Shown here: positions 1 to 27,424 of the stretch, one piece after another
How the letters are laid out: each line of letters starts with the position of its first letter
Position numbering within the stretch: position 1 is the first letter of the stretch
Source: an uncultured Clostridia bacterium
GTDB lineage: Bacteria; Bacillota; Clostridia; Christensenellales; UBA1242
Direction: 5' to 3'
Length of the DNA stretch: 43,239 nucleotides
Assembly: GCA_945921465.1 (NCBI GenBank)
Contig: CAMEKS010000007.1
Location: 1-43,239 of the forward strand
Made by a program: the position numbers and the translations under genes
The notes under the pieces: generated by a model
What the model was told of the DNA's origin: nothing
The model's database searches: none
Seen by the model: only the letters and a program-made list of their open reading frames with translations

Positions 1-3000
1 TCTGTTAACTTTGATGCAAAGACACAGACAGAGCAAGATCTAAATATATATGCACACAATTACACATCTAGTGCTAATCGTACTACGCAACTATTTGGTA
101 CTTATGTAACTTCATCTAATGGTACTAGAAGTTATAAGGATGTGGTGGCAATAGGTGGTATTGCTGGATACAACCAAGGTGCTATCATAGATAGTTACAA
201 CAAGGTAGATGTTACCAATAACACAACCAATGGTGCTGCGTTAATTGCTGGAGGTATAATTGGTTATGCAGACCAGGGCACATATATTGGCTACACCTAT
301 ACTACTGCCAATGTAATTGCTAAGCAAATTATTGGTGGATTAATCGGTTACTATCGATTAATAGAGTTAAATAAGGCTATCAATAATGACATTACAATAG
401 AACATTGTATTGCACTTAACCAATGGGATGGTCAGGTAGAGGCTATAATCAAGAACAACCTAAAGGGAGTATTTGGCAATGACCCAGTCGTAGTGCGTAT
501 GCCAGAACTTGGCAACCAAATGATGACCGATATTTATAAAACTGAGACATTAGAGAATACTTATAAATATGTATTAAATGTAACCAATAATGTGGCATAT
601 AATGTAGCAGTTGGTTCTCTGATAGGTACTATTGGTGGCAACAAGAGTATTACTAATAATGTAGATTATTTCACTGGCAGCTTCTTTACTAATAATAAAT
701 TGGCATTTGACAATATTTCTGCTATTAGTACTACATATGCTACATTCTACAAGACTGGCGAAGCAGGGAATGAGGCTAATTATTACGACAAATATCACAA
801 CCTTGCTGGCGCAGATGTATATTCTAGTGGTGTTACTAAGTGGGATCTAGGCTCAATTGTTAAGACTGCGATATCCGTAGAAGAAGCGACATATGTCTTG
901 ATTGATGACAAAGAAGAAATGCTTCTAGAAGGTAGCGGATATGAAGATACCAACATTATAACTAAGGTAGAATACGAAGCAAACATTAGCAAGTTTAAGG
1001 AAGGATATAAATCATTGTCTGATATGCTTGCTAATAATAAGTTAGTAATCATATCTCCTGCAGATGGCTACAGTCCAACTGAAGTATATTGCGATTACAA
1101 GTTTGATCGAATGTTTGAGAAAACTCAACAATTGCAGTTGCAGACAATTATTGGCTATTTCAATAACTTGGAAGAAATTAATAATGGCCAAAATAGCCAA
1201 GAGATTATAGACAAGAACAATTCGGTTAACTTGTTTGATAATGAGTATAACCAATATCAATACAAAGAGAATGGAGATAGAGATTATTCTAAAGAAGTAA
1301 TTAATATTGATGCTCGATTGGTGGATAGTAGCGAGGTATGGAAGATTCAACGCAACGGGTTCTTGCCAGAATATATTCGTGGCAATTATGAGCGAATAGT
1401 AATTGTCGATAGCACCGAAGACTTGATTTCTATGCTAAGCGACAGCGGAACTAACAAGATTTATCATATTTACAAGAATGATAAGAATTTAGCTGACATT
1501 AATTACAATATATATATTAATAACGAAAATTACACCTATAATTATGCTATGTTCAATAGCGTATTTAAGGGACAAATGATTGGTTATTATTATGACAATA
1601 ATGGTAGCGATAAGCAATCGGATAACAAAGATAATCGTCCTACTATCAATATATATACTGGCAACTCTAAGGGCTTATATTCTCTAATAAGTAGACTAGA
1701 TAGTGCATTGATAGATGGCGTTAACTTCCAGTTCTATATTCAGTATAATGAAGAATATATCAATGTACACGGCAATAGCGCAGGAGCATTTGGCTTACTT
1801 ACTCCTACTATGATATCTACCGATATACACAATGTAGATATATCCATATCTTCAACTTCTAATATCGTAAATCAAAACAAATTGACTCTTGTAGACGATG
1901 TGTCAGAAGAAGGACTATATAATGTCAAGAACTTTGGCCTATTTGCAGGCTCGTCTATTAATGGAACAATTAATAATGTAAATGTTGATATAAATACCGA
2001 TTTGCATATCACTACGGGTATATCTAATACAATTGGCGGATTTGTTGGATATGTGTCTGGTAATATCGTAAAAGATCTACATATCAATAATAATTCAAAT
2101 GGTAAAATGTCTATAGAAATAGACAATCGTAGGGCAGGTACTGGCGAATACTTGTATGTATCTACAGCAATGCCTAAGAACTATTACAACTCAATAACTA
2201 ATATTTCTAGTACTTTGCCTATCGCGGTAGGATACTATGTAGACAATGAGATAGAGCTAAGCAGTTATGGTATCAATTTCGATATTTATGTAGGTGGATT
2301 ATTTGCCAATACAATTGCAGGTAATATCAATACTGCATCATATGTGGCTAATGTTGATATCAACCTGTATAGAACAAGTTCGTCATTATCTTATTATTAT
2401 CTATACCTTGGTGCAATCTCTGGCAAAACAGCTGAATGCAGTATGACTGACTTGACCACATCAGGTAATATAGCTAACAAAGTTAATTTTAATAAATATA
2501 ATATTACAGCACAATATATCAATGCATATATAGGTGGATTAATTGGTTACAATGGCTCTAATTCTCCTATTAATGGTAGCACCAATAAGATTTATAGCAC
2601 TATTACTATCAAGCCACTAGGCATAAGCAGATATTATGTAGGTGGTGCTATAGGTTATAATGCTAATGGTAATAATACTACTAATAATAATATAATTGCT
2701 ATGGGCGATATATTGGTCGATACCAAAGAAAACATTTCTGCAGCTCAATTATTCCTAGGCGGAATAGTTGGCTACTCTGCATCGGGTTCATTCGATAATG
2801 TAACAACTACTGGGGACATCAAGACATATAATTCGGTTAATTTAACTAATGTATCCAATGCAACATACTATGTAGGTGGTATAGTAGGTTATGCTCGCAA
2901 TTGTACTATTACAGACTTTGAAGTATTGGGCGACATCTATTATGTCGTAGGATCCAACAACTACTATGCAGGCGTTATTGGATATTCTAAGAACACAGCT

Positions 3001-6000
3001 ATCAATCTGCAAAGAGGCAAATCTATTGCTAGATTCTATGCTAATCAGCCAGCTCAGGAGACTAAATACAATGCCAACTTGTATTCTATAGCCGAGAATT
3101 GCGTACAGCAATATACTACTCAGATAGTAGAGGAAAATGGCCAGCAAGTAGAGAAACAAATAAAGAATCCTTACTATACTGAAAAGGTATATTATATAGA
3201 GGAATTCTATGCTAAGTATGCTGATTTATACAATTCTTACGAATACTCATCTTCATACAACGGCACACAAGTATATTCGTATTATAATTTAAGCAAAATG
3301 AATATTAATAGTTATGATGAGGCCTTATTATCCAACAACTTATATCAAAAATTAAATCCTACAACTGTAACTGAGAATTCAGGTGATATTACAGAAGATA
3401 AATATTATATTATTAATGGTACTATTAGTAGTATTAAGGATGATTTTAATGGCGTAATTGCTGCTGATCCTAATAATAATACTGCTGATCCTAATAATAA
3501 TAATATTCAATCTATTACTAGTGGCACATTTGCTAATTCTTTAGATAGCAATGCTATTATAAGCGGAATCAAATTAAATGTTAGCAATGCTAGTGATATT
3601 ACTTCCAACTTTATCCCATTTGTTGGCACTAATAATGGTAGAATTATCAATTGTGTAACATTTGGCGAAGTTAGTGGAACTATTAATCCAGAGACTGAAG
3701 AGAATAATATCAAAGTTGTTACTTTTGTCAATGATAACAAAGGCGACATAGTCAGATCTGGCTCGGTAGTTACATTCACTGGTGCCTTCGGTAACAGTAA
3801 TGCCGAGAATAATAAACTAAAAGTGAATTATACTTATGTTAAGGATGCTGAGGGTAAGGATACTTCCACGATAGAGACTATCACAGCTACTCTGTCATTT
3901 ACAGGGCTAGTATATAATAATAAAGGTATGATATCTGACTGCTACTCACTAGTCAATGTCAACCATATTAACAAATCAACTACTCAAGATAGAGACTTGT
4001 TATTTATTAAGGACGGAGGCACTATTAAGACTGCCAAGGATATTAAATCTAGTCAACTTAATATCGCGGGGTTGGTGTATAATCAATATTCTCCATCTAA
4101 TCCTAATGCTAGCATCGGAATTTCTAACTCCTTCCATGCGGGCAAGATATTTGACACTACTACCAGTGCAATCAAATATTCTTATACCAATACTGGAATT
4201 GATGGTACACCTAGTGATACTACATTATTATCAACCAATCCTACCAATGCAATTAATGTATATGCTAATTCGTACAAGGACGATATTGAGGACGGAACTA
4301 ACCAGTACTTTGCAAACAATTCCATAACTAGTTGGCAAAATACTGAGGGGAACAAACAAAATACTATCTATGGTATAGATAACTGCGTCATCCCTAACAC
4401 TTACACCGGCAACGCTATTTGGGTTAAGACCAACAGCCGTGATGTTAACTATAATATGTATTATATTAACAACATCGCTATATCAAGCAATCCTAATAAT
4501 GTCAATACTGGCATCTCAGCAAAATTCGGTATTGAGACTAATACCGCGCAGACTTCAGTAGGCTATATAGATTCTAATGATAAGACTACTAAAGACATTT
4601 TGGATCAGTCATCTAATCTATATTCAGTCCCTGCAAGGGAACAATCAACTAAAGATCCTAACTTTGTATTGTTCCAAGATAAGTCTGATGCTATTATTGT
4701 CGAGACTAGTAGGGATTTGGCTAGATTGCTAAGAGACTATGCTAATAAGCCTTTGGATAATTCGGTTTATATAATAGCTGACGAGTTGGATATGTCGGGA
4801 TTGACCAACAATGGAGCCGGATTCAGTATCGGAAGCATTAAAGAGGACTGCGGTATTTACGGCATAGGCGGAAACCCTATTAGTACTAAAGATAATAAAT
4901 TCTATAGCCAAGGTACAATTATTAAGAACTTGAGTATTGCAAATTCTTTGGTGGGTGACAATAATGGTACAATCACAGGTATAGTATTAGAAAATGCTAC
5001 AGTCGTTAATTCAGACAATGCAACTGCAGTATTGGTCAACAGTAATAATGGAAGAATCTCAGGTGTGACAATTACTGGTGCAAAACTTACTGGTGGCAAA
5101 AATGCTAAATCAGTTGGCTTGGTGGCAGGCATTAACAATGGGACTATAGACAACATATATATTGGCGACTCAACCATATCCAAGGAGTATGGAACAGACT
5201 CTGATGTGATGGGCGGTGCAGTAGGTATTAACTATGGCAAGATGTTATACATATTTGCAGGCACTAGTTCCGAAGCTGATGGCAAAGGCATTATAATGTC
5301 TTATGCTGGCAACTATTCACTTGTAGCAGTAGGTGGATTGATAGGCAAGAATATTAAGAATACAAATCAACCAGATTCCCCAGACCCAATAGTAGACCAA
5401 TTAGGAATACATTTCTCTACCATTACGGCCAATAACTGTAGCAATGTCGGCGGTATCGTAGGCTATGGTGACTTGGATAATGGTGCAGAGATAGAGACTG
5501 CTCGTGCATATGTGTATTCTTCGTCTATTACAGGTAGGCAATATGTAGGCGGCATTGCAGGTCAATCTGCCCAACTTAATGGTGGTGATACTAGCGAAGG
5601 CGAGTATACGCTATTTGTATATAATTCTACTATTACAGCTACTGGTATATCTGATAGTGGCGCGTATGTGGGTGGTATTGTTGGTTCTATGTCTAAAGGT
5701 GAATTATCCAATGCCTATCTACTTAATGTCACTGTAAATGGTATTGATAATTATATTGGTGGCGTAGTTGGTAGTGCAGAAAGAGAAACAAGAAGCATAG
5801 ACAATATCATACTTCACAATATTACAGTTAATGCTAGTGGTAGCTATGTTGGTGGTTTGGTAGGTTATTCTATGGCCAATATATCTAATTGCACTATCAA
5901 TATTGTTAACGTTTCTAATACTTCAATCTCTGGCCAATATACAGCTGGTGCTATTGGATCTAATAATGGTGGTGAATTATCTAGTATTGCTATTAATAAT

Positions 6001-9000
6001 CTTGGCTCTGCAACTAATAACTCTATTTCTTCTGTTTATGCCAACACAATTAATAGAGCATATGTAGCAGGATTGGCTGGATACAATAGCGGAGCAGTTA
6101 GCAATTGCTCGATAGCGAATACTAATGTTTCCGCCAATGATGAGTTTGTTGCAGGTTTTATAGCATACAATAATTCTGAATCTAATGAGATCGAATTAAA
6201 TTGTGTGGCAGCCAATAACGAAACACTTCCAACTCTATCCAATATCAATGTTACTGTTGAAGTAGTAAAAGTAGGGGAGTCATTAACCACTAATGACTAT
6301 GTTGGCGGACTTTTTGGATATTTTAATTCAGGTAAAGTTACTGGCTCAGCTTCAATCACAGACATCACAATTACTGGTGGTCAATTTGTAGGTGGTGTCG
6401 CTGGCGCTAATAATGCTGAGATTAGTCCTACTAACATCACTATTAAAGGTATTGATATCCGTGCTCACCAGTGTGTTGGTGGTGCAGTGGGACAAGCAGA
6501 TGCAACAGTCAAAAATATTACAGTATTGGGTAAAGACGCAAGTAGTTATGCTACAATCAATGCGAGTTGGTATGTTGGTGGTATAGTAGGAAAAGCAACC
6601 AATCAAGATAACGAAATTAGTAATTGCAAAGTACAGTTTGCGACGATTACTTCTACCAACACTACTATGAAAGAATCTAATACAGTAGTAGAGGCTTATG
6701 CAGGTGGTATCGTAGGATTATCAAACAGCTCTATCAAAAATTCAATCGTGTCAGATATCACAGTTGTCGCTAGCGGATATTGTGTTGGTGGAATAGCTGG
6801 TTTGAGCAAAAAAGAGATCACTAATTCATTTGTTGACTCATCCATTGGAACAATTAACAATATCATTTCGTCTAGCGCAGGCGACTTTGTAGGCGGTGTT
6901 ACTGGTTATGCTGAAGGCGAAATATCCAATAGTGGTGCATACAATATCACTGTTTCTGGATACGCTATTTACGAAGCTGCTACAGATGATAGGGCTGCTG
7001 GATATTCATCATATGTCGGTGGTATAGCAGGCTACTCTAAGGCAAAGATAAGTAATGTCGTTGTCAGCACCACATCTTGGTCTATTTCTAATATCATCAC
7101 CTCTACCAAGTCGGATAGCAGATATATCGGTGGTATTGTGGGTTATTATGAAAGGCCAACAGGTCAAAGTGATTCACAACTAACTCAAATTACCGTAGCT
7201 AATACATCGATTAATGGTAATGCCAGTCAATATATTGGTGGTGTTGTAGGTTTTTATAGGGTCAAAGACACGTCAAGTAGCGTCGCTGAATCCGATATTG
7301 GTTATTATAGTACTGTAAATACACCAGATAATCTTAAAGCATTTATTCCAAACACAAATAATAACAAACAAACCATATTTAATGTCACTGTAGACGGTAA
7401 TCAATATATCGGCGGAATTATTGGTTCGGTATACACCTCAATTCCATTTACCTTAAGTAATATGGATCTATATAGCATCCGTGTCTCAGCATCTGGCAGT
7501 TATGTAGGTGGAGTCGTTGGTAGATTAACAAACGAGACGAGAGATGCCAGCGGAAAAGTAACAACAAAAGGTACTTCGACTATCTACGGAATCACTATAT
7601 CTGGCGGAAATACCGAGTCTACCTACTCATCAGTATTCTCATCTACAACAACTGGCCAATATGTAGGTGGCGTGGCTGGTTATGCAGATACATTGCTAGG
7701 AGGAATCAATACATCAAAAGGAATAATTGGGCATCAAATACAGGTATCCAACACCAAGATAGAGTCTGGTGCCAAGTATACTGGCGGTATCGTCGGATAT
7801 ACTAATTCTGTAGCAAACGATTATGAAGGAATCTATTCAGGCAAAGAAACGAATCATAATAATTACCTATTTGTCCTAGACAATATTAATATGGTAGTAG
7901 GTAATAGCGTGGCAGGTGGCGTAGCAGGACACGCCGACTATGTCAAAGGAATATTCCTAATGGAAAACTCTACTATCACCGCCTCTAGTACCACATCGAT
8001 TTCTAGAATAGGTGGTATGTTCGGTGAAATTATCGGTTCCTTGTATAGTGGATTAAGCAGTGGCAGCGGCCCTGCAATGCTGGCCAATTATAACACCATT
8101 ACAGTGAACAATGGTAGTAATGTGATTGGTACAGATGGGGCTGGTATTGGTGGTATTGTTGGCTACTTGGTGTATGAACAAGGTAGTAATATGACTAGTA
8201 TACTTGCCCAACAAGCAATCAAGTCTAATCAACTTACCTTAAATGTTAGTGGTTGCTATGTAGGTGGCGTATACGGATATGTCAAATCAGAGTATGTTAC
8301 TGATGATTGCAATGTATATAGTGGATATACATATGCCAGCACAATCAATTGCTCAGGTGTTGCCGAATATGTAGGCGGCGTAATTGGTAAAGCAGACCAA
8401 GCAAACCTATATAGAATGCTTGTAAACGATGTAATTATTAATGTTTCTGGCACATATGGCCACTATGTCGGCGGAATTGTTGGCGAATTAACAGGTAATA
8501 TCGAAGAAGCCACAGTATCTGAATGGGGTAATGGGCTATCCATTACCACTACAGGTAGATATGTGGGCGGTATTGCCGGCAAAGTAAAAGGCAAAATCAC
8601 TGGCAATATTTATTTGCTTAGCCAAGTTAGTATTACTTCCACATTCTCTGGCAACTACACGGTGACCGAAAATGGTCAAGGTGTAGGATTGACCAAGGTA
8701 TATGATGTGTATCTTGGTGGTGTAGTAGGTTATATTAGTGGTGAACTTGGAAAGGCAAACAAAACATCTGATAACAATCTAGTCAAGATTAAAAATATGA
8801 ATATATCTGCTTTGCAGGGTGTAGTAGGTGGCGTTGCAGGTTGGGCTGATTATATTTATAGCAATATAGATATACAAGGTATCAATATCAACTGTGCAGG
8901 ACAATCAGTAGGTGGCGTTGTTGGTTACCTTAACAAAGAAATGAAAGGCACAGGAGATAATACCTACGCCGCAGTCAAAATTCGTGGTATTAAGAATTTT

Positions 9001-12000
9001 GAAACAATCACAGGAGATCAATTTGTAGGTGGCATTACTGGTGGTGGAACAGTCCTAAAATATTATGATGGTTCAAATATCCGAACAATAACTGATACGA
9101 GCAAAGAATATACTTATAATGTTGTTCCAACGCAGTATATATACGGCAGTGAAGATGAAAGCAAAAAATATTTTGGTAAATCTCTATTAACCGATAGTAA
9201 TTTCCAAACTATCAAAAATATATATAATGGCAAAACCGTTAACTTTACATTTATGAAATCTGATCGCACAGTACTTGCAAATAATGTTCCTGTTACTAAT
9301 TTGGATGGTACATATAACTCATATAAAAATGATATTTATTACATATTATGTAGTGATGGTACAGAATACTCCAATGCGTACTTCAAAATTAATGATATAG
9401 TATATAATGTTAATAGTTATGCCGATAATAGTGGAAACCCTAAGGACAGTAAACTAATATTATATACCAGTGTAGGTACATATAAATTTGAACATACTTA
9501 TGATACTGCTACAGGTAATTCTGTATACATAGACGTACAAAATATAGCAAAGTCTATATCATTAGACAATATCGAATATGCACAATTTACTGATGGAAGT
9601 GGTAAAGTAATAGAAACTTATGGAATGGAAAATGTGGCAGGCTCTATACAGGATGAGAATGTTACTAAGTCAATATTGTCATACTTGTCTGAATTGGGTG
9701 ATGGAACGCTTATTTTATATAACAAATATGATAAGGTTGTTGCGCAATACAGGCAAAGAGATTTCAAGGCCAATGTAAATGGTACAAAGGCTGTAATAGA
9801 CAATATTCAAAATACCAATTGTCAATATGTTAAATATGTGACTGATGATAGCAAAATCTATGTATTTGGGCAATCATACACATATTCTAAGAATCATATC
9901 TATAATATGTATCTTAGCCTTGCCGAAAGGTTGGGAAATAATATAATTATTACTATTAAAGGACCAAAAGATACTAGTCCCCGTACTGTTTATGGTAGTA
10001 AATACAAGGATATATTGCAAGAAGTCAGAGAAAATGGATTGGATAAATTTGAAATTAATAGTGTTACTATCAAAGAAATAGAGCAAGGGTCTTTAGGTCA
10101 AGGTGGCAATAATTATTTCATCTCTGTAGACAACCTTAATATCGAAGCTAGCAACTATGTTGGTGGCGTAATAGGTTACTCTGGCAACAACGATAATATA
10201 GTAATAGATAACCAAGGTCACGTGGTTGGTTGTACTATCTCTGCCACAGGCGACTATGTGGGCGGCGTAGTAGGATTTGCTGCAGGCACCAACGCTATTA
10301 TAAGTGGCGTGTCAAAGGCAAATACTGTTACTGGTAAAGATTATGTCGGCGGATTTGCTGGATTGCATACTGGCGGAATAATTAATTCTTCGCAATATAG
10401 CACCGAAAACAATATATCTGGTAATATGTACATCGGTGGTGTAGTAGGACATACATCTGGCAATATGTCAGCCAAGATTGGCAATAGCAATATATCTGGT
10501 AAATCTTATGTGGGTGGTATTGCTGGTAGAATTGCTTCAACTGACACAGTAGAGTTTGGTACAACCTTTGTTAAGTCTAGTACTATAGAGGGTGAGACAT
10601 ATGTAGGTGGTATTGCGGGAAGTATAGAAGTAAAGAATACTTCTCAAAGATTGGATCAATATATTGGTATCTACGATAGTACTGTTAAGTCTATACTTAA
10701 CTCATCCGATACTTATACCTATGTAGGTGGAATCTTCGGCTATGCTAGTAGTAGTATTACTGATGTAACAAAAGGTATATTTATTAACCAAATAGAGACT
10801 ATCAATACGCTAGTCAATGGTGTATCTGGCGTAGGTGGCGTAGTCGGCGTAATGGCAGGAACACTAACTAGCGCTAGAGATAGCATTAAAAAAATCGGTG
10901 GAATCTATGTAATAGGCGACAAGTTTGGTAAATATGCTATTACTGGCAACTCTGGTGTAGGTGGAGTAATTGGTATATTGCAGAATTATTCTAATACTAG
11001 AGCAGGTTGGTACAAATCTAGTTCATTTGTAATGGATTACAAGATCGGCGACTTGGCTGCCAATAATGTTGGCGGCATTATAGGTTTGGCAATCAATGCG
11101 GGCGGCGGAATGGATGGCAGTATGCGTGTAGTCAATGGGCTTAATACGTCTACTGCGGCAGGTGGTTTGAGTCTAGGATATGGCACAGGCTCAATATCTC
11201 ATAACAATGTTGTTAATAATAATATGCAATATTCTACCGCTCCATCTTCGGATAATTTCTACATCCAAGGTAACTCTAATGTCGGCTCATTGGTCGGCGG
11301 TATAGATAATTCTGATAATAGATCTAAGAGTATTACTGTACCAAGACTTACCGCTAGTACTATTAATAGCAATGTTATAGGCAATAGCAATGTGGGTGGT
11401 TGGTTCGGTAGTGTTACTGGAGCTGATGTTACTGTTGCAAATTACAATGCGTCTAAGTCACCAGCAACAGACTTTGAAGCTAATGGATACTATGCTACAT
11501 CTATTCAAGCAACTGGTAATAATATAGGTGGTGTATTCGGATATATGTCAGATAGTTCTACCAATGGCAATATGTTTGTATTACCTACGATCAATGCTAC
11601 TTCGTCTAACTACTTAGGTGGTGCAATAGGTTATGCTATTAATACTGATGTATCTAATATATTTATAAATGGTTCTGAATCGTCCAAAGTATTTATTACT
11701 GGGCAGAACTATATAGGTGGTATTGCTGGGTACTTTGGCAGAGATGATGCTGACAAGTCCGCTATCATGACTAATTGCGGTATTACATATACTGCGGTTA
11801 AGGGCGACTCTATAGTAGGTGGCATAATTGGTCAGTGCGTCAATGCAGGAGTATCTAATGTAACTAACGACACCAACTCTACCGTAGATGGTAACCAATA
11901 TGTAGGCGGTATTATAGGATACTTGTATTCTACTGATGAATTGCCTACCGCAACTACCGTATCTTCTCTTAATATTATAGAAGACGAGTTTACTCCGGTA

Positions 12001-14211
12001 ATTAAGACATCGGTACTTGCAGCTAGTACGAGTGCAAAACTATATGCACACGTTTCTAATGTTACTAACAATTCTAATGTGACTGGAAATAAATATATTG
12101 GCGGTATAGTAGGTTATACCAACAAGGCAGTATTAGATGCTGATAGCGTAAGTTGTAATATAGAATCAGAAATCAGATATAATGGAGCATTTACCAAAGA
12201 TACTTTAATTGAGCCAAACATAGGATTAGATGAGAAATATCCTATTCATGATGAAAATTATGATGTTATAGAAGAATTTTCAATAAAAGATTTCCTAGAT
12301 GGGATATGCACTATAACAATTTATTTCTATAATGCAGCTGCAGAAAACCAAGAGGAACCAAATATACCTACCCTAAGTCCATATTATCACGATTCTTATA
12401 AAAATACTTATAGCCAAAGTCCTAATAAGGTTGAAATTCAAGCAAGTAAATTAACACTATCACAACTAATTAAAATGCTTTATTCAACTTATATGAACAT
12501 AACTTATAAAAACAGTGCACGGAATGGAATAGCTGTTGGTTATATCAATAAAATTGAAGTTAAGAGAACATATACTTATAAATATAACGAGCTTGTAGAT
12601 ACTCTTGATTCAGAAGGAGATTGGCGAACTGCTTTACCTATTGGACCAATTATTGGCAATGCATTTAATGATTGCGATTTGGCAGAAAGTAATAAATACA
12701 ATTATAACAATATGATAACAGATGGAGATTTTGATAGTGAAAAAATTAATGTATATGACTCTAATAACAATAAGCCTTTAAGTGAAAATAGCTTAAAAGA
12801 TTATGATATAAAGATAAAACAATATGAAGTTAAAGAAAAAAGTTTTGAAGCATCATTAACGCTATTGCCACTTAGCACCTATATGAGCGCTAATGCATTA
12901 ACAAATCGAAGTGTAGACTTGTGGGGAATACAAGAAAATACTGATGGTTCTATAAACCATGGAGTTAAACTTGATTTACATATTAATGAAAGTGATTACT
13001 CAATGTATGTTTATAAGAATTTAGTTACCATTAGTGATTCAATCACTAAGATGTGTGGAATTTCCGGTATTAAAGCTGAAAATGATTTGTTGTTTATTCA
13101 TGAAACAAGCAATTCTTCATTATATTTGGCAGATAATAGTTGTTTAGTACATTTTGAGAATGTTAAATTGGAATCAGATCCAAATAATAGCATGTATTAT
13201 AATTATTTTCAAAGAATTCCAACATATACAAATTCTTTCAGTTCTGATTTTGTAGCAACATGCAATCTTATAGAAAAAATAAAGCTCTATCAAACAGAGT
13301 ATTTAGCTAATGGTTTTAATCTAAAACATAAATACATACAAAATAGTTATGATTCAGATTTATATAATTTCAAATATGCAGAGATTGAATTAATAAACGC
13401 AGATGTTTGGAATCCATTAAATAATGATTCTGCTGGTGGATGGTGGGTAAAGAGAATAAGCAATGCAACTATTAGTTGTAATACAGAAATGACTGTTGGT
13501 AATTATATATATAAATTAACATGGTCTACGGGGTCTAGGATACCATTACCTACTGATTTAATAATAAGTGACAAACAGTATACAGAAAGTAATATAGGTA
13601 ATATATTGAAATTACAACAAGGCAATAGTGATTGCGTGGCTACCTCGTTTGCAATAGCAACAAGCGCCTTAGCAACAAGAAACAGAGATCATTTTGATAT
13701 AACAAACCTAATTGAAGGTAATGAATATTGCGATGGAAAATTTGGAGATGGCAATACCAATTCTACGTTAAAAAATATTTGGAAACAGCAAGGATTTGTT
13801 TCTGGAGATAATGTATCCTATACAGGAACTCCAGAAAAATTAAAAAATTATTATAGTGTTTATTATGATCATTATGAAACCAATCCATATTTCCAAACAT
13901 TATTTGCAAAAGATAAGCTAAATCAAGGATGTGTATTGGTTTTGGTTTTCAAGTATAAACATAGCCCAACAACTGCTACATATGATGGTACTCATGCTAT
14001 AGTTATATATAAAAGTGTTGGTAATTATATTAATTATATAGATCCTTCAATGACATTATTTGCCAATAAAAATAAAGTAGATGGAACTATAAATTACAAT
14101 AAGCTTACACTAGATGACCTTTTAACAGATATTAGTACCCTAGTAAGATCTGAAAAAATTTATTACTATAATAGTCAATTAAAAGCTATAAATGTGTTAA
14201 GAGTGGCATAA
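1..14211 (+). CDS. Giant GLUG-repeat surface protein with C-terminal C39-like cysteine peptidase domain (5' end outside window)
   Basis: The frame is open from base 1, so the tracked start at 142 is not the real start; 4736 residues are visible. Most of the protein is built from GLUG-type repeats with the core YVGGIVGY and variants, densest at nt 4900-9060 and 10130-12130; such repeats are expected to form a long beta-solenoid on the cell surface. Non-repeat islands lie at about 420-2000, 3050-4850 and 9060-10120. From about 12150 the repeats stop. The last ~210 residues look like a papain/C39-like peptidase: QQGNSDC (Gln 4492, Cys 4498 in ORF-track numbering), GTHAIVIY (His 4618) and YIDPS (Asp 4634), the expected order of oxyanion Gln, Cys, His and Asp. 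No LPXTG motif or C-terminal membrane helix is visible, so anchoring is unexplained. Adhesin-like role is inferred. A convergent terminator follows the TAA. Confidence 0.85.
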   Translation, partial: SVNFDAKTQTEQDLNIYAHNYTSSANRTTQLFGTYVTSSNGTRSYKDVVAIGGIAGYNQGAIIDSYNKVDVTNNTTNGAALIAGGIIGYADQGTYIGYTYTTANVIAKQIIGGLIGYYRLIELNKAINNDITIEHCIALNQWDGQVEAIIKNNLKGVFGNDPVVVRMPELGNQMMTDIYKTETLENTYKYVLNVTNNVAYNVAVGSLIGTIGGNKSITNNVDYFTGSFFTNNKLAFDNISAISTTYATFYKTGEAGNEANYYDKYHNLAGADVYSSGVTKWDLGSIVKTAISVEEATYVLIDDKEEMLLEGSGYEDTNIITKVEYEANISKFKEGYKSLSDMLANNKLVIISPADGYSPTEVYCDYKFDRMFEKTQQLQLQTIIGYFNNLEEINNGQNSQEIIDKNNSVNLFDNEYNQYQYKENGDRDYSKEVINIDARLVDSSEVWKIQRNGFLPEYIRGNYERIVIVDSTEDLISMLSDSGTNKIYHIYKNDKNLADINYNIYINNENYTYNYAMFNSVFKGQMIGYYYDNNGSDKQSDNKDNRPTINIYTGNSKGLYSLISRLDSALIDGVNFQFYIQYNEEYINVHGNSAGAFGLLTPTMISTDIHNVDISISSTSNIVNQNKLTLVDDVSEEGLYNVKNFGLFAGSSINGTINNVNVDINTDLHITTGISNTIGGFVGYVSGNIVKDLHINNNSNGKMSIEIDNRRAGTGEYLYVSTAMPKNYYNSITNISSTLPIAVGYYVDNEIELSSYGINFDIYVGGLFANTIAGNINTASYVANVDINLYRTSSSLSYYYLYLGAISGKTAECSMTDLTTSGNIANKVNFNKYNITAQYINAYIGGLIGYNGSNSPINGSTNKIYSTITIKPLGISRYYVGGAIGYNANGNNTTNNNIIAMGDILVDTKENISAAQLFLGGIVGYSASGSFDNVTTTGDIKTYNSVNLTNVSNATYYVGGIVGYARNCTITDFEVLGDIYYVVGSNNYYAGVIGYSKNTAINLQRGKSIARFYANQPAQETKYNANLYSIAENCVQQYTTQIVEENGQQVEKQIKNPYYTEKVYYIEEFYAKYADLYNSYEYSSSYNGTQVYSYYNLSKMNINSYDEALLSNNLYQKLNPTTVTENSGDITEDKYYIINGTISSIKDDFNGVIAADPNNNTADPNNNNIQSITSGTFANSLDSNAIISGIKLNVSNASDITSNFIPFVGTNNGRIINCVTFGEVSGTINPETEENNIKVVTFVNDNKGDIVRSGSVVTFTGAFGNSNAENNKLKVNYTYVKDAEGKDTSTIETITATLSFTGLVYNNKGMISDCYSLVNVNHINKSTTQDRDLLFIKDGGTIKTAKDIKSSQLNIAGLVYNQYSPSNPNASIGISNSFHAGKIFDTTTSAIKYSYTNTGIDGTPSDTTLLSTNPTNAINVYANSYKDDIEDGTNQYFANNSITSWQNTEGNKQNTIYGIDNCVIPNTYTGNAIWVKTNSRDVNYNMYYINNIAISSNPNNVNTGISAKFGIETNTAQTSVGYIDSNDKTTKDILDQSSNLYSVPAREQSTKDPNFVLFQDKSDAIIVETSRDLARLLRDYANKPLDNSVYIIADELDMSGLTNNGAGFSIGSIKEDCGIYGIGGNPISTKDNKFYSQGTIIKNLSIANSLVGDNNGTITGIVLENATVVNSDNATAVLVNSNNGRISGVTITGAKLTGGKNAKSVGLVAGINNGTIDNIYIGDSTISKEYGTDSDVMGGAVGINYGKMLYIFAGTSSEADGKGIIMSYAGNYSLVAVGGLIGKNIKNTNQPDSPDPIVDQLGIHFSTITANNCSNVGGIVGYGDLDNGAEIETARAYVYSSSITGRQYVGGIAGQSAQLNGGDTSEGEYTLFVYNSTITATGISDSGAYVGGIVGSMSKGELSNAYLLNVTVNGIDNYIGGVVGSAERETRSIDNIILHNITVNASGSYVGGLVGYSMANISNCTINIVNVSNTSISGQYTAGAIGSNNGGELSSIAINNLGSATNNSISSVYANTINRAYVAGLAGYNSGAVSNCSIANTNVSANDEFVAGFIAYNNSESNEIELNCVAANNETLPTLSNINVTVEVVKVGESLTTNDYVGGLFGYFNSGKVTGSASITDITITGGQFVGGVAGANNAEISPTNITIKGIDIRAHQCVGGAVGQADATVKNITVLGKDASSYATINASWYVGGIVGKATNQDNEISNCKVQFATITSTNTTMKESNTVVEAYAGGIVGLSNSSIKNSIVSDITVVASGYCVGGIAGLSKKEITNSFVDSSIGTINNIISSSAGDFVGGVTGYAEGEISNSGAYNITVSGYAIYEAATDDRAAGYSSYVGGIAGYSKAKISNVVVSTTSWSISNIITSTKSDSRYIGGIVGYYERPTGQSDSQLTQITVANTSINGNASQYIGGVVGFYRVKDTSSSVAESDIGYYSTVNTPDNLKAFIPNTNNNKQTIFNVTVDGNQYIGGIIGSVYTSIPFTLSNMDLYSIRVSASGSYVGGVVGRLTNETRDASGKVTTKGTSTIYGITISGGNTESTYSSVFSSTTTGQYVGGVAGYADTLLGGINTSKGIIGHQIQVSNTKIESGAKYTGGIVGYTNSVANDYEGIYSGKETNHNNYLFVLDNINMVVGNSVAGGVAGHADYVKGIFLMENSTITASSTTSISRIGGMFGEIIGSLYSGLSSGSGPAMLANYNTITVNNGSNVIGTDGAGIGGIVGYLVYEQGSNMTSILAQQAIKSNQLTLNVSGCYVGGVYGYVKSEYVTDDCNVYSGYTYASTINCSGVAEYVGGVIGKADQANLYRMLVNDVIINVSGTYGHYVGGIVGELTGNIEEATVSEWGNGLSITTTGRYVGGIAGKVKGKITGNIYLLSQVSITSTFSGNYTVTENGQGVGLTKVYDVYLGGVVGYISGELGKANKTSDNNLVKIKNMNISALQGVVGGVAGWADYIYSNIDIQGININCAGQSVGGVVGYLNKEMKGTGDNTYAAVKIRGIKNFETITGDQFVGGITGGGTVLKYYDGSNIRTITDTSKEYTYNVVPTQYIYGSEDESKKYFGKSLLTDSNFQTIKNIYNGKTVNFTFMKSDRTVLANNVPVTNLDGTYNSYKNDIYYILCSDGTEYSNAYFKINDIVYNVNSYADNSGNPKDSKLILYTSVGTYKFEHTYDTATGNSVYIDVQNIAKSISLDNIEYAQFTDGSGKVIETYGMENVAGSIQDENVTKSILSYLSELGDGTLILYNKYDKVVAQYRQRDFKANVNGTKAVIDNIQNTNCQYVKYVTDDSKIYVFGQSYTYSKNHIYNMYLSLAERLGNNIIITIKGPKDTSPRTVYGSKYKDILQEVRENGLDKFEINSVTIKEIEQGSLGQGGNNYFISVDNLNIEASNYVGGVIGYSGNNDNIVIDNQGHVVGCTISATGDYVGGVVGFAAGTNAIISGVSKANTVTGKDYVGGFAGLHTGGIINSSQYSTENNISGNMYIGGVVGHTSGNMSAKIGNSNISGKSYVGGIAGRIASTDTVEFGTTFVKSSTIEGETYVGGIAGSIEVKNTSQRLDQYIGIYDSTVKSILNSSDTYTYVGGIFGYASSSITDVTKGIFINQIETINTLVNGVSGVGGVVGVMAGTLTSARDSIKKIGGIYVIGDKFGKYAITGNSGVGGVIGILQNYSNTRAGWYKSSSFVMDYKIGDLAANNVGGIIGLAINAGGGMDGSMRVVNGLNTSTAAGGLSLGYGTGSISHNNVVNNNMQYSTAPSSDNFYIQGNSNVGSLVGGIDNSDNRSKSITVPRLTASTINSNVIGNSNVGGWFGSVTGADVTVANYNASKSPATDFEANGYYATSIQATGNNIGGVFGYMSDSSTNGNMFVLPTINATSSNYLGGAIGYAINTDVSNIFINGSESSKVFITGQNYIGGIAGYFGRDDADKSAIMTNCGITYTAVKGDSIVGGIIGQCVNAGVSNVTNDTNSTVDGNQYVGGIIGYLYSTDELPTATTVSSLNIIEDEFTPVIKTSVLAASTSAKLYAHVSNVTNNSNVTGNKYIGGIVGYTNKAVLDADSVSCNIESEIRYNGAFTKDTLIEPNIGLDEKYPIHDENYDVIEEFSIKDFLDGICTITIYFYNAAAENQEEPNIPTLSPYYHDSYKNTYSQSPNKVEIQASKLTLSQLIKMLYSTYMNITYKNSARNGIAVGYINKIEVKRTYTYKYNELVDTLDSEGDWRTALPIGPIIGNAFNDCDLAESNKYNYNNMITDGDFDSEKINVYDSNNNKPLSENSLKDYDIKIKQYEVKEKSFEASLTLLPLSTYMSANALTNRSVDLWGIQENTDGSINHGVKLDLHINESDYSMYVYKNLVTISDSITKMCGISGIKAENDLLFIHETSNSSLYLADNSCLVHFENVKLESDPNNSMYYNYFQRIPTYTNSFSSDFVATCNLIEKIKLYQTEYLANGFNLKHKYIQNSYDSDLYNFKYAEIELINADVWNPLNNDSAGGWWVKRISNATISCNTEMTVGNYIYKLTWSTGSRIPLPTDLIISDKQYTESNIGNILKLQQGNSDCVATSFAIATSALATRNRDHFDITNLIEGNEYCDGKFGDGNTNSTLKNIWKQQGFVSGDNVSYTGTPEKLKNYYSVYYDHYETNPYFQTLFAKDKLNQGCVLVLVFKYKHSPTTATYDGTHAIVIYKSVGNYINYIDPSMTLFANKNKVDGTINYNKLTLDDLLTDISTLVRSEKIYYYNSQLKAINVLRVA
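4900..9060 (+). repeat. GLUG-type protein repeat array, main block
   Basis: Within the giant gene, the peptide core YVGGIVGY (variants YIGGVVG, FVGGVAG, YAGGIVG) recurs roughly every 35-60 residues, usually after a short Thr/Ser/Asn-rich beta segment. At DNA level the cores are similar but not identical, so this is an old, diverged protein repeat rather than a fresh tandem DNA duplication. Confidence 0.85.
10130..12130 (+). repeat. GLUG-type protein repeat array, second block
   Basis: The same YVGGVIGY-type repeats resume after a roughly 340-residue island that lacks them. The last clear unit is YIGGIVGYTNK near nt 12100. Downstream sequence is AT-richer and has no GLUG cores. Confidence 0.85.
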
Positions 14212-14285: not shown

Positions 14286-14942
14286 CTACTTATTTATTTC
14301 AGATTCCATTTTGAAATCTTTGTAGTATTGAATTTTATCGCCGTTATATGGTGTATCTGAAGAATTAACTACGTCAAAGAATTGATCCTTATCTTTTTGC
14401 TCGTCAAAGCATTTATCACAAAAATAATAATCAGTATTAGATATTTGTTGAAAGGGTTGATCACAGAAAATGTAAAAGTGACTGTTGTTATAATCAACAT
14501 ATGTATTGGAAAAATTATCCATATTGTCATTATCTATTCCACAACCCAAAATCATTCTTAAGTTATTATCCTTATCTGTTTGAAAAATAGTGTTAAATTT
14601 ATGAATAACTGCGTTATTGATACTGTCATTATAAATGGCACAATAACTAAAGTTTCTCATTTTTTGTTCAGAGATAACATTATAAATTTTTCTAAAATCT
14701 AGTGGATTAGGGAAATCGAAATCGATATGTTTTTCGATGGTTGGCTCGCAGGTGCAAGCTGGTTGAACTGGCTCGGTTGTTTGGCTAGTGCTAGGTGCAG
14801 AGGTAATATCACTGACGCTAGTGCTAGGCTCTGTATTTGAGGTAGAGATTGTGGTCTCGGCTGGTTTGTTGCCCATACAAGATGTTAGCAACATAGTAGC
14901 AAGGCTTAGGGCAGATAATTTTGCTATTGTTTCTTTTTTCAT
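14286..14942 (-). CDS. Lipoprotein of a four-member H-C-CxxC family (paralog 1)
   Basis: 218 residues. A short Lys-rich start and hydrophobic segment end in the lipobox LLTSC, so Cys22 should be lipidated and the protein held on the outer face of the membrane. A Thr/Ser/Pro-rich linker follows to about residue 65. The core shared with the three neighbours holds FSYC (Cys101), AVIHKF (His114), LGCGIDND (Cys134) and YYFCDKCFD (Cys175, Cys178). The His plus three Cys could bind a metal, but this is inference; I do not recognise the family. The end, DFKMESE, is shared with paralog 2. ATG start chosen with AAAGGA upstream. Signal region and promoter are almost identical to paralog 2, while the rest differs strongly. 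Confidence 0.85.
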   Translation of the reverse strand: MKKETIAKLSALSLATMLLTSCMGNKPAETTISTSNTEPSTSVSDITSAPSTSQTTEPVQPACTCEPTIEKHIDFDFPNPLDFRKIYNVISEQKMRNFSYCAIYNDSINNAVIHKFNTIFQTDKDNNLRMILGCGIDNDNMDNFSNTYVDYNNSHFYIFCDQPFQQISNTDYYFCDKCFDEQKDKDQFFDVVNSSDTPYNGDKIQYYKDFKMESEINK

Positions 14943-15253: not shown

Positions 15254-15892
15254 CTACTTTTCAATTTCAAGTTCAGATTCCATTTTGAAATCTATCTCAG
15301 GTGAAATATAATACCATTCTAAGTTTTTAGCACCTGCTTTTGATACTTCTTCTTTAAACTTTCTTATGTCATCTTCATTATTAAAACATGAATCGCATAG
15401 ATATACTTTATTACTAGGACATATACGGTCTATACTTGTGGATTGAGATGGAGCAAATTCAGATTTATATAGATTGTTTATTTCATCATTAGGTGTGTTG
15501 TCACGTCCACAAGCTAGAGTATAAACATAATGTGTTCTAAATTCAGAAATATCTTTACCATATGTGTCATAACAACATAAATCTCTAAATTTATGATAAA
15601 CAATACCTTCCTTTACGTTTTGATCAATTTTGAATCCAATAAATTCGTATGGTTCTACATGTTCTAATACATCTAAATTATGAATATTTTTATTATTTTT
15701 CATAATTTCAACTGGATCGGGATAATCAAAATCTATATGGTTAGTAGTTATTGGCTCGGTTGTTTGGCTAGTGCTAGGTTCTGTATTTGAGGTAGAGATT
15801 GTGGTCTCGGCTGGTTTGTTGCCCATACAAGATGTTAGCAACATAGTAGCAAGGCTTAGGGCAGATAATTTTGCTATTGTTTCTTTTTTCAT
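15254..15892 (-). CDS. Lipoprotein of the H-C-CxxC family (paralog 2)
   Basis: 212 residues. The first 42 residues, including the lipobox LLTSC (Cys22), are identical to paralog 1. The mature part is divergent but keeps the family core: IVYHKF (His100), TLACGRDN (Cys128) and VYLCDSCFN (Cys166, Cys169), and it ends in IDFKMESE like paralog 1. It lacks the cysteine that precedes the His in the other three, but has CC just after the His (Cys106-107). A surface-exposed, possibly metal- or disulfide-stabilised protein is inferred. Start supported by AAAGGA and by the promoter 60 bases upstream. Identical front and divergent body suggest recent duplication with module exchange or strong diversification. 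Confidence 0.85.
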   Translation of the reverse strand: MKKETIAKLSALSLATMLLTSCMGNKPAETTISTSNTEPSTSQTTEPITTNHIDFDYPDPVEIMKNNKNIHNLDVLEHVEPYEFIGFKIDQNVKEGIVYHKFRDLCCYDTYGKDISEFRTHYVYTLACGRDNTPNDEINNLYKSEFAPSQSTSIDRICPSNKVYLCDSCFNNEDDIRKFKEEVSKAGAKNLEWYYISPEIDFKMESELEIEK

Positions 15893-16159: not shown

Positions 16160-16996
16160 TTATTCCATTTCTGGTTCTGCTGGTTCTACTTTTTCTTCTG
16201 ATGTTGCGTCAGATGTAGCAAAGTACGCCTCTTTGGCTTCTTTTAATTTGGCCAATTCCGAAGCATATTTTACCTTGAAATATTTATCTCTAAATTTTTG
16301 CTTCATAGGGGAATCGTTAATGTTACTAGCATATCCAAATAGGAAAATCATCATATTGTCATCCATACATTTGTCGCAGAAGTACATATAACTTTTGTTT
16401 GCGATTTCTTCAGGTATTTCGCAATAATCATAGATGCTGTTGTCATAATTAACATAAGTGTGCTCAAATTTATCCTTGTCGTCATTATCCAGACCGCAAC
16501 CTAGTACAAAGTGGTCAAACTTGGCATTAGGCGCTTCGGTGGTAGACTCTGTGGTAGACTCTGCAATTGATTCTTGTTCATTATCCTTGCCGGTAAAGAT
16601 AGTATTGTATGTATGTACAACTACGCTCTTCATATCTTTATCATATACTAGGCAAAATTTTATGCCCGAAGTCCTATATTTTACATACAATTCCTTTAGT
16701 TCGTCTAGATCTACTGGGTTAGGAAAGTTGAAGTCACTATAATCTGGTACTGTAATTTCTGTGGTTTCAGTGGTCTCAACTGGTTCAGTAGTTATGATAG
16801 GCTCGGTTGTGATAATAGCTTCACTGGTGGTCTCTACTGGCTCGGATGTATTCTTAGTAACTACTGTGGTCTTGGTAGGTTCGGTAATGGTTGTGTCGGT
16901 TGTGGTAGCATCATTTGGCTTGTGTTGATTGCACGCAGTTAGCAAAGCAGCAGAAAGCATTAGTGCAGATAGTTTAGTCAATGTTTCTTTTTTCAT
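16160..16996 (-). CDS. Lipoprotein of the H-C-CxxC family (paralog 3), long Thr/Glu linker
   Basis: 278 residues, the longest of the four. Signal peptide with lipobox LLTAC (Cys22). A Thr/Glu/Val-rich low-complexity linker with TTEP repeats (about residues 28-85) probably spans the cell wall. The core repeats the family order: KFCLVYD (Cys115), VVVHTYN (His128), LGCGLDND (Cys167) and MYFCDKCMD (Cys207, Cys210). A second Ser/Thr/Glu insertion (about 140-157) sits between His128 and Cys167, and the C-terminus is acidic. Start supported by AAGGAAGA. Leader is about 105 bases from the predicted promoter at 17109-17136. Function unknown; surface exposure inferred from lipobox. Confidence 0.85.
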   Translation of the reverse strand: MKKETLTKLSALMLSAALLTACNQHKPNDATTTDTTITEPTKTTVVTKNTSEPVETTSEAIITTEPIITTEPVETTETTEITVPDYSDFNFPNPVDLDELKELYVKYRTSGIKFCLVYDKDMKSVVVHTYNTIFTGKDNEQESIAESTTESTTEAPNAKFDHFVLGCGLDNDDKDKFEHTYVNYDNSIYDYCEIPEEIANKSYMYFCDKCMDDNMMIFLFGYASNINDSPMKQKFRDKYFKVKYASELAKLKEAKEAYFATSDATSEEKVEPAEPEME

Positions 16997-17248: not shown

Positions 17249-17818
17249 TTATCTCTCTAGTTCGGATAGAGAGCGATAGCCTAGCGACTCGTGATTAACA
17301 ATATTTGATACAGGATAAATATTTTCTTCGGGGTAGCCATAGTTCATAGTGTGATAGTATTGTTGCACCTTGGCACTATCATTGATGTGGTTAGGCGATT
17401 GTATATCAAAACATTTATCGCAAAGATATAGGTTGAAATTAACCAAGTCATCTGCCGAAAAATGGAACATATCGCCGCATTCTTCTTTGTGTTGGTCTAG
17501 TATGTAAGTATTCTCGTACTTATCCGTTGGGTTATTGTCTAACTGACAGTCTAGGTTAAGATATTCTACATTGGGCACATTAACATTTTGTCTAATTGCT
17601 TTTGCAGAGTGAACAACAATATCACTAAAGCCATTGGTTACTATTCCGCAGTACAATTCTTTGCCTTGTTGTCTGCTAGCGATTGTGACCATAGATGGGT
17701 CTTGCACAGGTTCGTATTTAATTAGGTTGTCCTCATTGTTTTTGGTTGTGCTTTGACTAAGTAATTGTAGCAAGATTGCTGATGTAGCAATAGCTCCGAT
17801 TATTTTTGATTTTGTCAT
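17249..17818 (-). CDS. Secreted member of the H-C-CxxC family lacking the lipobox cysteine (paralog 4)
   Basis: 189 residues. The N-terminus has a hydrophobic segment (IIGAIATSAILLQLL) but no lipobox Cys: the equivalent place reads LLSQS, so it is either cleaved by another peptidase or stays membrane-tethered. The family core is intact: LYCGIV (Cys57), IVVHSA (His70), LDCQLDN (Cys91) and LYLCDKCFD (Cys133, Cys136). The low-complexity linker is very short. Start chosen with AGGAG eight bases upstream. Its promoter (17848-17875) is the same type as its neighbours' and diverges from the carboxypeptidase gene. No terminator as clear as those of the other paralogs is seen after the stop. Confidence 0.8.
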   Translation of the reverse strand: MTKSKIIGAIATSAILLQLLSQSTTKNNEDNLIKYEPVQDPSMVTIASRQQGKELYCGIVTNGFSDIVVHSAKAIRQNVNVPNVEYLNLDCQLDNNPTDKYENTYILDQHKEECGDMFHFSADDLVNFNLYLCDKCFDIQSPNHINDSAKVQQYYHTMNYGYPEENIYPVSNIVNHESLGYRSLSELER

Positions 17819-17969: not shown

Positions 17970-19139
17970 ATGAGAAAAATATTATGTGCAATAATTGTTA
18001 TGTTGTTGATGTTGTCTGCCGTAGTTACTGGGCAGGTCAATGCCAGCACTAATGGTGCGACAATTGGGGCCTTTGATAATTTTTCCTCCACTAGTTATAT
18101 ACTAATGGATGCTGGCACTGGCAAAGTACTTGTCAATTTTAACGAAGAAGAGCGTGTGCCAGTAGCAAGTATTTGCAAACTTATGACTAGCCTACTTACG
18201 TTAGAAGCAATAGAGCGTGGTGACATTAGCCTAGAGACCATGGCTCTGGCCAGCGAACACGCTTGCGAGGTAGAGGGTAGTCAGGCATTCTTGGATGCGG
18301 GCAGTCAGTATAGTGTGGCGGACTTGCTTAAGAGTGTAGTAGTGGCATCTGCCAATGATAGTGCGATTGTATTAGCAGAACTGATTGGAGGTACCGAGGA
18401 GAGGTTTGTAGACAAGATGAATTTGCGAGCGAACGAGTTGGGGATGAACAATACTCATTACACCAATTCAACCGGCTTAACAACTATAGACCAATATAGT
18501 ACTGCCTACGACACATGCTTGATCCTTAGAGCAATCAATGGATATGCAACATATCAAGAATATGCCAAGATATGGATGGATAACCTTACTCATCCATCCG
18601 GTAGGGTAACCGAACTGGTTAATACCAATAGACTAATAAGATATTATCCGTATTGTGTAGACGGCAAGACTGGTTTTACAGACGAGGCAGGCTATTGCCT
18701 AAGTAGTGTAGCAGAAAAGGACGGTGTTAAGCTAGTTGCAGTAGCATTGCATTGCAAAGATGCCGCCAGTCGTTTTTTGGAAGTAAAAGACTTGTTTAAT
18801 TATGGGTTTGCTACATTTACTAATAGACTGGTATTGGCGGCTGATGACTACAATGCCGAAGTTGCTGTAACTGGCGGAGATATCAGTAAAGCAGCAATTG
18901 GATTATCTAATGACTTGAAGTATCTAGCCGATAAGTCAGATAATAGCGAATATAGTGTAGTATACAATATTCCTAATAGTATCGATGCCCCTAGGAGTTC
19001 AGGAGATGTAGTTGGTACGGTGGATGTGCTATTAGGTGATGAGGTTGTCTCAAGTGCCGACATTGTACTATTGCAAGACATATCTAAGCAAAATTTATGG
19101 AATGTTTTGCAGAAGATATTTGCTGATTGGGCTATTTAA
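17970..19139 (+). CDS. D-alanyl-D-alanine carboxypeptidase, PBP5/DacF type
   Basis: 389 residues. Removes the terminal D-Ala from peptidoglycan pentapeptides outside the membrane, limiting cross-linking. A signal peptide (residues 1-25) is followed by an S11 serine peptidase domain with all three motifs: SICK (Ser67, Lys70), SAN (127-129) and KTG (233-235). A PBP5-type C-terminal beta domain follows from about residue 280, and the final LWNVLQKIFADWAI looks like the amphipathic membrane-binding helix of this family. Length is normal. Start ATG has GAGAGGAG eight bases upstream. It diverges from the lipoprotein array and is followed by a terminator, so it is probably monocistronic. The exact paralog (dacA/dacB/dacF) cannot be decided; sporulation role unknown. 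Confidence 0.93.
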   Translation: MRKILCAIIVMLLMLSAVVTGQVNASTNGATIGAFDNFSSTSYILMDAGTGKVLVNFNEEERVPVASICKLMTSLLTLEAIERGDISLETMALASEHACEVEGSQAFLDAGSQYSVADLLKSVVVASANDSAIVLAELIGGTEERFVDKMNLRANELGMNNTHYTNSTGLTTIDQYSTAYDTCLILRAINGYATYQEYAKIWMDNLTHPSGRVTELVNTNRLIRYYPYCVDGKTGFTDEAGYCLSSVAEKDGVKLVAVALHCKDAASRFLEVKDLFNYGFATFTNRLVLAADDYNAEVAVTGGDISKAAIGLSNDLKYLADKSDNSEYSVVYNIPNSIDAPRSSGDVVGTVDVLLGDEVVSSADIVLLQDISKQNLWNVLQKIFADWAI

Positions 19140-19399: not shown

Positions 19400-19428
19400 T
19401 TGACAATTAATTGAATTAAGTATAAACT
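19400..19428 (+). promoter_or_regulatory. Promoter of Ig-like surface protein gene
   Basis: Consensus TTGACA at 19400, then TATAAACT with spacing 15 (TATAAA) or 17 (TAAACT). The leader to the ATG would be about 45 bases. Confidence 0.5.
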
Positions 19429-19476
19429 CTACTTGTTACAATACAACAATTATCTTTAAGGAGAATATTTACTATT

Positions 19477-27408: not shown

Positions 27409-27424
27409 AGGGTAGGTGAGTAAA

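What the first reader, a model, noticed from the sequence alone, without database searches (positions are those of the whole stretch)
13590..14211. C39-like cysteine peptidase domain at the end of a giant GLUG-repeat protein
The last ~210 residues contain QQGNSDC, GTHAIVIY and YIDPS in the order and spacing of papain/C39-like peptidases, attached to more than 4000 residues of GLUG solenoid with no visible anchor. The peptidase could release or cross-link the protein, process neighbours, or act as a toxin-like tip. I know of no described system with this pairing.
Basis: partly seen in the sequence, partly recalled or inferred. Interest (0 to 1): 0.7.

Follow-up and report, generated by a model that had tools for sequence, protein, structure and literature searches.

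The report
Giant gut lipoprotein with protease-like tip
The window holds the far half of a roughly 9,000-residue surface protein of an uncultured gut Clostridia bacterium, tethered by a lipid at its other end and ending in a small domain with the signature of a cysteine protease; related giant proteins in the same genus end in a different protease-like tip or in none, which makes them look like very long arms carrying exchangeable tools.

Summary
Observation confirmed. The open frame at 1-14211 (4736 aa, cut by the contig start) is GLUG-rich and ends in a ~210-aa domain with QQGNSDC, GTHAIVIY and YIDPS at the stated place. Two orthologous giants in the same genus (8,428 and 9,182 aa) keep Cys, His and Asp-Pro at only 16-28% tail identity. 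No Pfam, NCBIfam or PDB sequence match exists. AlphaFold models have low confidence (pLDDT 37-41) but show papain topology, and their weak Foldseek hits are enriched in papain-like cysteine proteases. I take the papain-like fold as probable, not proven; C39 membership was tested and not met.

'No visible anchor' is an assembly artefact. The N-terminal half lies on contig C23 (4216 aa, lipobox) and abuts the window in the orthologs (aa 1-4029 and 4033 onward). The genome encodes Lgt and LspA. The protein is therefore a ~8,950-aa lipoprotein, tethered at the N-terminus, with the tail at the distal tip.

All 13 genus genomes carry GLUG proteins, most of them giants. A related group shares ~7,000 residues of shaft, but its tips differ: NlpC/P60 once, twice, or nothing recognisable. 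Small lipoproteins unique to the same three genomes lie beside the tail gene: possible partner or immunity, confounded by clade. Best reading: a membrane-tethered arm displaying a papain-like hydrolase.

The parts
1..14211 (+). C-terminal 4736 aa of a ~8,950-aa GLUG-rich lipoprotein; 5' end cut by the contig edge
   Evidence: open frame at base 1; window is the whole contig C7; PF07581 hits; co-linear with G001:C18 giant from its aa 4033 on at 33% and with G005:C4 giant from aa 4099
13588..14208 (+). papain-like (C39-like) tail domain, ~207 aa
   Evidence: conserved in two orthologs; low-confidence models with papain topology
13633..13635 (+). predicted nucleophile Cys (frame aa 4545) in QQGNSDC, at the start of a predicted helix
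13993..13995 (+). predicted catalytic His (frame aa 4665) in GTHAIVIY, at the start of a predicted strand
14041..14043 (+). predicted third catalytic residue Asp (frame aa 4681) in YIDPS, at the end of the next predicted strand
12118..13587 (+). poorly conserved stretch (~490 aa) between the last GLUG-like motif (aa 4034) and the tail
14286..14942 (-). small lipoprotein 1 of 4, convergent with the giant gene (lipobox LLTSC, LCxxCF-type motif); candidate partner, inhibitor or immunity protein
   Evidence: family found only in the three genomes with the papain-like tail
15254..15892 (-). small lipoprotein 2 of 4
16160..16996 (-). small lipoprotein 3 of 4
17249..17818 (-). copy 4 of 4 of the same family (no clear lipobox)
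17970..19139 (+). D-Ala-D-Ala carboxypeptidase (peptidase S11 / PBP5), conserved neighbour of the giant in all three genomes
   Evidence: PF00768 E 4e-63; synteny

Best explanation
The window encodes the distal half of a giant (~8,950 aa) lipoprotein. It is exported, lipid-tethered at its N-terminus to the cytoplasmic membrane, and extended outward by thousands of residues of GLUG-type repeats. At its free C-terminal end it displays a small papain-fold cysteine hydrolase (Cys4545-His4665-Asp4681). The tip most likely cleaves a peptide or isopeptide bond in a target that the arm reaches: the surface or peptidoglycan of a neighbouring cell, or a protein in the gut content or matrix. The convergent small lipoproteins are candidate partners or self-protection. 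Shown: sequence, conservation of the three residues, ortholog architecture, lipobox, Lgt and LspA, different tips on related shafts. Inferred: fold, catalysis, extended shape of the arm, target, and role of the small lipoproteins.
For: Cys/His/Asp-Pro are kept in three diverged tails. Predicted secondary structure is papain-like: helix 36-53 with Cys at 38, strand 156-166 with His at 158, strand 169-173 followed by Asp at 174, and the same order in the second model. Weak fold hits are enriched in papain-like cysteine proteases. N-terminal half: G000:C23 ORF aligns to ortholog aa 1-4029 and the window from 4033; transketolase lies upstream and dacA downstream of the giant in all three genomes, seen across C23 and C7 in the window's genome. 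Lipobox pattern in C23, G001, G005 and most sister giants. Lgt and LspA encoded. Frames of 25-28 kb without a stop in several species at 30-40% identity argue for selection. Sister giants share ~7,000 aa of shaft but several differ in the last 1,000-1,450 residues, two of them ending in NlpC/P60, another papain-fold hydrolase family.
Against: No significant sequence or structure match of the tail to any known peptidase. The tail was found in only three genomes of one genus. Activity, localisation and target are unknown. The arm is inferred to be extended, not modelled.
Confidence: 0.5

Rival explanations
1. Polymorphic-toxin-like contact weapon: the shaft is a delivery arm, the tips are interchangeable hydrolytic toxins, and the convergent small lipoproteins are immunity proteins.
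For: Conserved shaft with variable tips; Tox-PLC39 and Tox-NLPC/P60 are described as polymorphic-toxin tips and one immunity family (Imm65) is a lipoprotein (PMC3482391); small lipoproteins are found only in the three genomes with the papain-like tail.
Against: The small genes are convergent, not co-directional. The three genomes form one clade (transketolase 56-60% against 45-48% to most others), so co-occurrence may be shared ancestry. No releasing peptidase or HINT domain found by Pfam. No such gene family in the genomes with NlpC/P60-tipped giants.
Confidence: 0.2
2. Cross-linking adhesin: the Cys enzyme acts as a transglutaminase or transpeptidase and fixes the far end of the arm covalently to a partner surface.
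For: Methanogen adhesin-like proteins of gut and rumen carry C-terminal transglutaminase-like domains (PMC11532034). GLUG proteins of a gut archaeon are interpreted as possible adhesins (PMC9723798).
Against: Motif order and model topology look like a canonical papain or C39 arrangement; no transglutaminase profile match.
Confidence: 0.12
3. Self-processing: the tail cleaves its own protein or neighbouring surface proteins to release or mature them.
For: Papain-like domains act as releasing peptidases in some polymorphic toxins (PMC3482391). A poorly conserved stretch of ~490 aa precedes the tail.
Against: A domain at the extreme C-terminus can release little besides itself; no cargo lies beyond it.
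Confidence: 0.1
4. The tail is a degenerate, non-catalytic papain-like or unrelated binding domain.
For: No significant match to any catalytic family; low-confidence models; fast divergence of the tail.
Against: The three putative catalytic residues are kept while almost everything else changes.
Confidence: 0.08

Closest known systems
Adhesin-like proteins of gut methanogens (Methanobrevibacter ruminantium M1, M. smithii, Methanosphaera stadtmanae)
   Same: long membrane- or wall-anchored surface proteins with beta-helical or Big-type repeats, some with a papain-family (PF00112) or C-terminal transglutaminase-like domain (PMC2812497, PMC11532034)
   Different: archaeal, anchored by transmembrane or wall domains, pseudomurein context; GLUG not mentioned in PMC11532034; here ~9,000-aa lipoproteins
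Polymorphic toxins with Tox-PLC39 or Tox-NLPC/P60 tips (PMC3482391)
   Same: N-terminal export signal, long repeat filament, variable C-terminal papain-like domain
   Different: GLUG shaft and lipid anchor rather than RHS or FilH; no proven immunity; no releasing domain found
Pfam Glug PF07581 proteins, including GLUG proteins of Methanimicrococcus blatticola (PMC9723798) and, from memory, streptococcal M26 IgA1 proteases
   Same: GLUG repeats on surface proteins; in M26 proteins GLUG repeats occur together with a C-terminal protease domain (from memory, not tested)
   Different: M26 is a zinc metalloprotease, wall-anchored and about 2,000 aa (from memory); here a cysteine-protease-type tail on ~9,000 aa
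C39 and C39_2 peptidases (PF03412, PF13529)
   Same: Q...C, H, DP motif order; predicted secondary-structure order
   Different: no significant profile match; not fused to an ABC exporter; at the end of a giant exported protein

Membership tests
[quoted passage not shown]
   predicted helix 36-53 with Cys at residue 38, but pLDDT 37; same in the second model, helix 28-45, Cys 30
Papain-like (clan CA) cysteine peptidase superfamily | Cys, His and a third polar residue (Asn, Gln, Asp or Glu) in that order, conserved among homologs | tested here: met
   C, H and DP in all three tails; His after a one-residue shift in G005
Papain-like (clan CA) cysteine peptidase superfamily | significant profile or fold match to a member | tested here: inconclusive
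   no Pfam, NCBIfam or credible PDB sequence hit; Foldseek E >= 0.039 with low-confidence models, hits enriched in papain-like folds; the models are too poor to count as a failed fold test
Papain-like (clan CA) cysteine peptidase superfamily | peptidase activity | not testable with these tools
   needs recombinant protein
Peptidase C39 / C39_2 | match to PF03412 or PF13529 | tested here: not met
   no hit at E <= 10; hhalign with six C39_2 from the same bacterial family P 0.03, in the right register for His and Asp-Pro, control P 0.33
Peptidase C39 / C39_2 | ABC exporter fusion and double-glycine leader processing (classical C39) | tested here: not met
   domain is the C-terminus of an exported giant; no transporter domain in the frame
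GLUG proteins (PF07581) | repeated GLUG motifs above the gathering score | tested here: met
   pieces of the window protein score 22.6, 58.2 and 23.6 against a cut-off of 20.5
Bacterial lipoprotein | N-terminal signal with lipobox, plus Lgt and LspA in the genome | tested here: met
   MKKKIMTLLVILFGSVMTLLGC on C23, matching a PROSITE-type lipobox pattern, assuming that C23 and C7 carry one gene; Lgt and LspA found
Polymorphic toxin | conserved N-terminus and shaft with variable C-terminal tips | tested here: met
   met for sister (B-type) giants: ~7,000 aa co-linear, last ~1,000-1,450 aa unrelated in several pairs, NlpC/P60 in two; in the window's own orthologs (A-type) the tail is conserved
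Polymorphic toxin | adjacent immunity gene | tested here: inconclusive
   clade-specific convergent small lipoproteins
Polymorphic toxin | toxicity neutralised by the immunity protein | not testable with these tools
   needs an experiment
Methanogen adhesin-like protein | sequence homology to archaeal adhesin-like proteins | not tested
   only architecture compared, from papers

The most novel reading that the evidence does not exclude
A genus of reduced-genome gut Clostridia has evolved giant (8,000-9,300 aa) lipid-tethered arms with exchangeable papain-fold tips (a new C39-like family, NlpC/P60 once or twice, or none) together with dedicated small lipoprotein partners: a machine-free, contact-dependent system for attacking or processing neighbouring cells.
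Probability: 0.2. Interest if true: 0.85.

Novelty: new variant of a known kind. Interest (0 to 1): 0.56.

Why it matters
A 1.1-Mb genome that spends several per cent of its DNA on a few 24-28 kb surface-protein genes must get something important from them. The shared shaft with different protease-like tips gives a concrete, testable idea of what giant surface proteins of uncultured gut bacteria do: carry an enzyme far from the cell. The tail is also a candidate new family of papain-like enzymes that current libraries do not recognise.

Tried and rejected
Whole-protein Pfam scan returned nothing, not even Glug; pieces worked. First genome-contig scan with the tail alone found nothing; a scan with the conserved 1,500-aa C-terminal region found the two orthologs with names. 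Weak profile hits in G095 (an SbcD-like nuclease) and G605 (a giant frame whose matched stretch lacks the Cys) were rejected as false. PDB sequence hits 4zgf and 9l08 (cytochrome) are not credible. PHROGs hit at E 0.0085 dismissed. LDL and TRASH Pfam hits on ortholog tails dismissed. WYL regulators CapW and BrxR top the second fold search and are treated as spurious, which also shows how weak that search is. A search for the isolates' source papers found none.
Full report
OBSERVATION. The frame at window 1-14211 is open at the first base and encodes 4736 residues; the window is the complete contig G000:C7 of a 1,165,090-base, 60-contig genome. Pfam Glug is found when the protein is scanned in pieces. 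58 GLUG-like motifs were counted, the last at aa 4034, so about 490 residues of poorly conserved sequence separate repeats and tail.

RELATIVES. A genus search with the tail found one hit in G001 inside an 8428-aa frame. Comparison of all giants then showed a third tail at the end of a 9182-aa frame of G005, confirmed by a profile search. The named records are SVIC01000005.1 (Clostridiales bacterium SIG400) and JAFQDL010000005.1 (Clostridia bacterium RGIG1719, goat cecum). The three tails share 16-28% identity, yet Cys and Asp-Pro are invariant and His aligns after a one-residue shift in G005. Profile searches of 309 genomes of the family and 396 of the order found no further true member (two weak hits rejected). 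The two- and three-sequence profiles are weak, so distant members may have been missed.

FOLD. No Pfam, NCBIfam or credible PDB sequence match supports the tail. AlphaFold2 with three sequences gave pLDDT 37.4 (window first) and 40.8 (G001 first). Both place the Cys at the start of a long helix, the His at the start of a strand and the Asp at or just after the end of the next strand, then a helix and a final strand, which is the order expected for papain and C39 enzymes; [quoted passage not shown] Foldseek found nothing at E <= 1e-3. That these are papain-like enzymes is established knowledge. Given the low confidence of the models this enrichment is suggestive only. hhalign against six C39_2 sequences from the same bacterial family aligned His to His and Asp-Pro to Asp-Pro at P 0.03 (unrelated control 0.33). 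I put the papain-like fold at about 0.85 and catalytic activity somewhat lower. C39 family membership is not claimed.

ANCHOR. Contig C23 holds a frame of 4216 aa on its minus strand that begins MKKKIMTLLVILFGSVMTLLGC (a lipobox) and runs off the contig end. It aligns to aa 1-4029 of the G001 giant and the window frame aligns from aa 4033, and likewise in G005 (5-4095, then 4099 on). Transketolase precedes the giant and dacA follows it in G001 and G005, and the same genes flank the two pieces on C23 and C7. So C23 and C7 almost certainly carry one gene of about 8,950 codons. I compared the two pieces apart and did not join them. Lgt and LspA are encoded.

SISTER GIANTS. All 13 genomes of the genus have Glug matches and most have several giant frames (17 regions read). 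Three lipoprotein groups are clear: A (the window's type, 8,400-9,200 aa, in G000, G001, G005), B (8,000-8,750 aa, in G002, G003, G004, G006, G010, G012) and C (about 4,600-5,400 aa, next to B). A further type is seen in G001:C2 and G005:C12. B proteins are co-linear over about 5,000-7,000 residues at 29-39% identity, but the last 1,000-1,450 residues are unrelated in several pairs. G006 and G010 end in NlpC/P60 (22.2 bits, just under the cut-off of 23, and 30.2 bits, above it, with two copies in G010), 34% identical to each other; the others show no recognised tip. A and B tips are thus different papain-superfamily branches on related shafts; whether this is swapping or separate gain is not resolved.

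NEIGHBOURS. Between the giant and dacA lie convergent genes for small lipoproteins with an LCxxCF-type motif: four in the window, one two-domain gene in G001, one in G005. A profile search finds them in exactly these three of 13 genomes. The three genomes are also a clade by transketolase and DacA identity, so the pairing may be ancestry. Several of the genomes without hits are incomplete.

MECHANISM. Shown: residues, conservation, lipobox, architecture. Inferred: the arm is extended; the tip is outside and far from the membrane; it hydrolyses a peptide or isopeptide bond. I prefer a displayed hydrolase (0.5), then a contact toxin with immunity (0.2), cross-linking adhesin (0.12), self-processing (0.1) and inactive domain (0.08).

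KNOWN KINDS. Long surface proteins with papain-family or transglutaminase domains are described in gut and rumen methanogens (PMC2812497, PMC11532034), GLUG proteins as possible adhesins in a gut archaeon (PMC9723798), and C39-like and NlpC/P60 tips in polymorphic toxins, with one lipoprotein immunity family (PMC3482391). Giant genes in other phyla have been linked to predation (PMC12057145). The combination here - giant lipid-anchored GLUG arm, new papain-like tail, different tips on sister arms - was not found in the papers searched, which are open-access only. Hence: new variant of a known kind.

Noticed in passing
window 19426-22176 and 22133-22963: Two overlapping frames (+) both match one 1203-aa surface protein of G001:C18 (38514-42125), at its aa 4-912 and 933-1192: a frameshift in the window's copy, real or an assembly error.
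   Followed up: partly
G000:C23:13438-15408 (L063, L082): Transketolase upstream of the giant is interrupted by a stop in the window's genome, intact in G001 and G005.
   Followed up: no
L042-L044 (G010:C6:22032-47045): 8337-aa sister giant ends in two tandem NlpC/P60 domains; the G006:C7 8752-aa giant ends in one.
   Followed up: partly
L056-L058 (G001:C2:50661-77879) and L048-L051 (G005:C12:50109-78053): A further lipoprotein giant pair (9072 and 9314 aa, 34% identical end to end) ends in Cys/His-rich tails (HTHDAGCYNSC-like repeats), perhaps metal-binding; a fragment of its ortholog is G000:C27.
   Followed up: no
L048 (G005:C12:572-18922), L052-L053 (G005:C7:141346-162987), L039-L041 (G006:C8:74513-104449): Other giant frames of 6116, 7213 and 9978 aa without a lipobox and with fewer GLUG motifs, with hydrophobic stretches near the N-terminus.
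   Followed up: no
window 23708-28888: Three large frames (892, 340, 490 aa) without Pfam matches, the first two poorly conserved in G001 (33%), between surface genes and well-conserved genes; possibly more fast-evolving surface functions.
   Followed up: no
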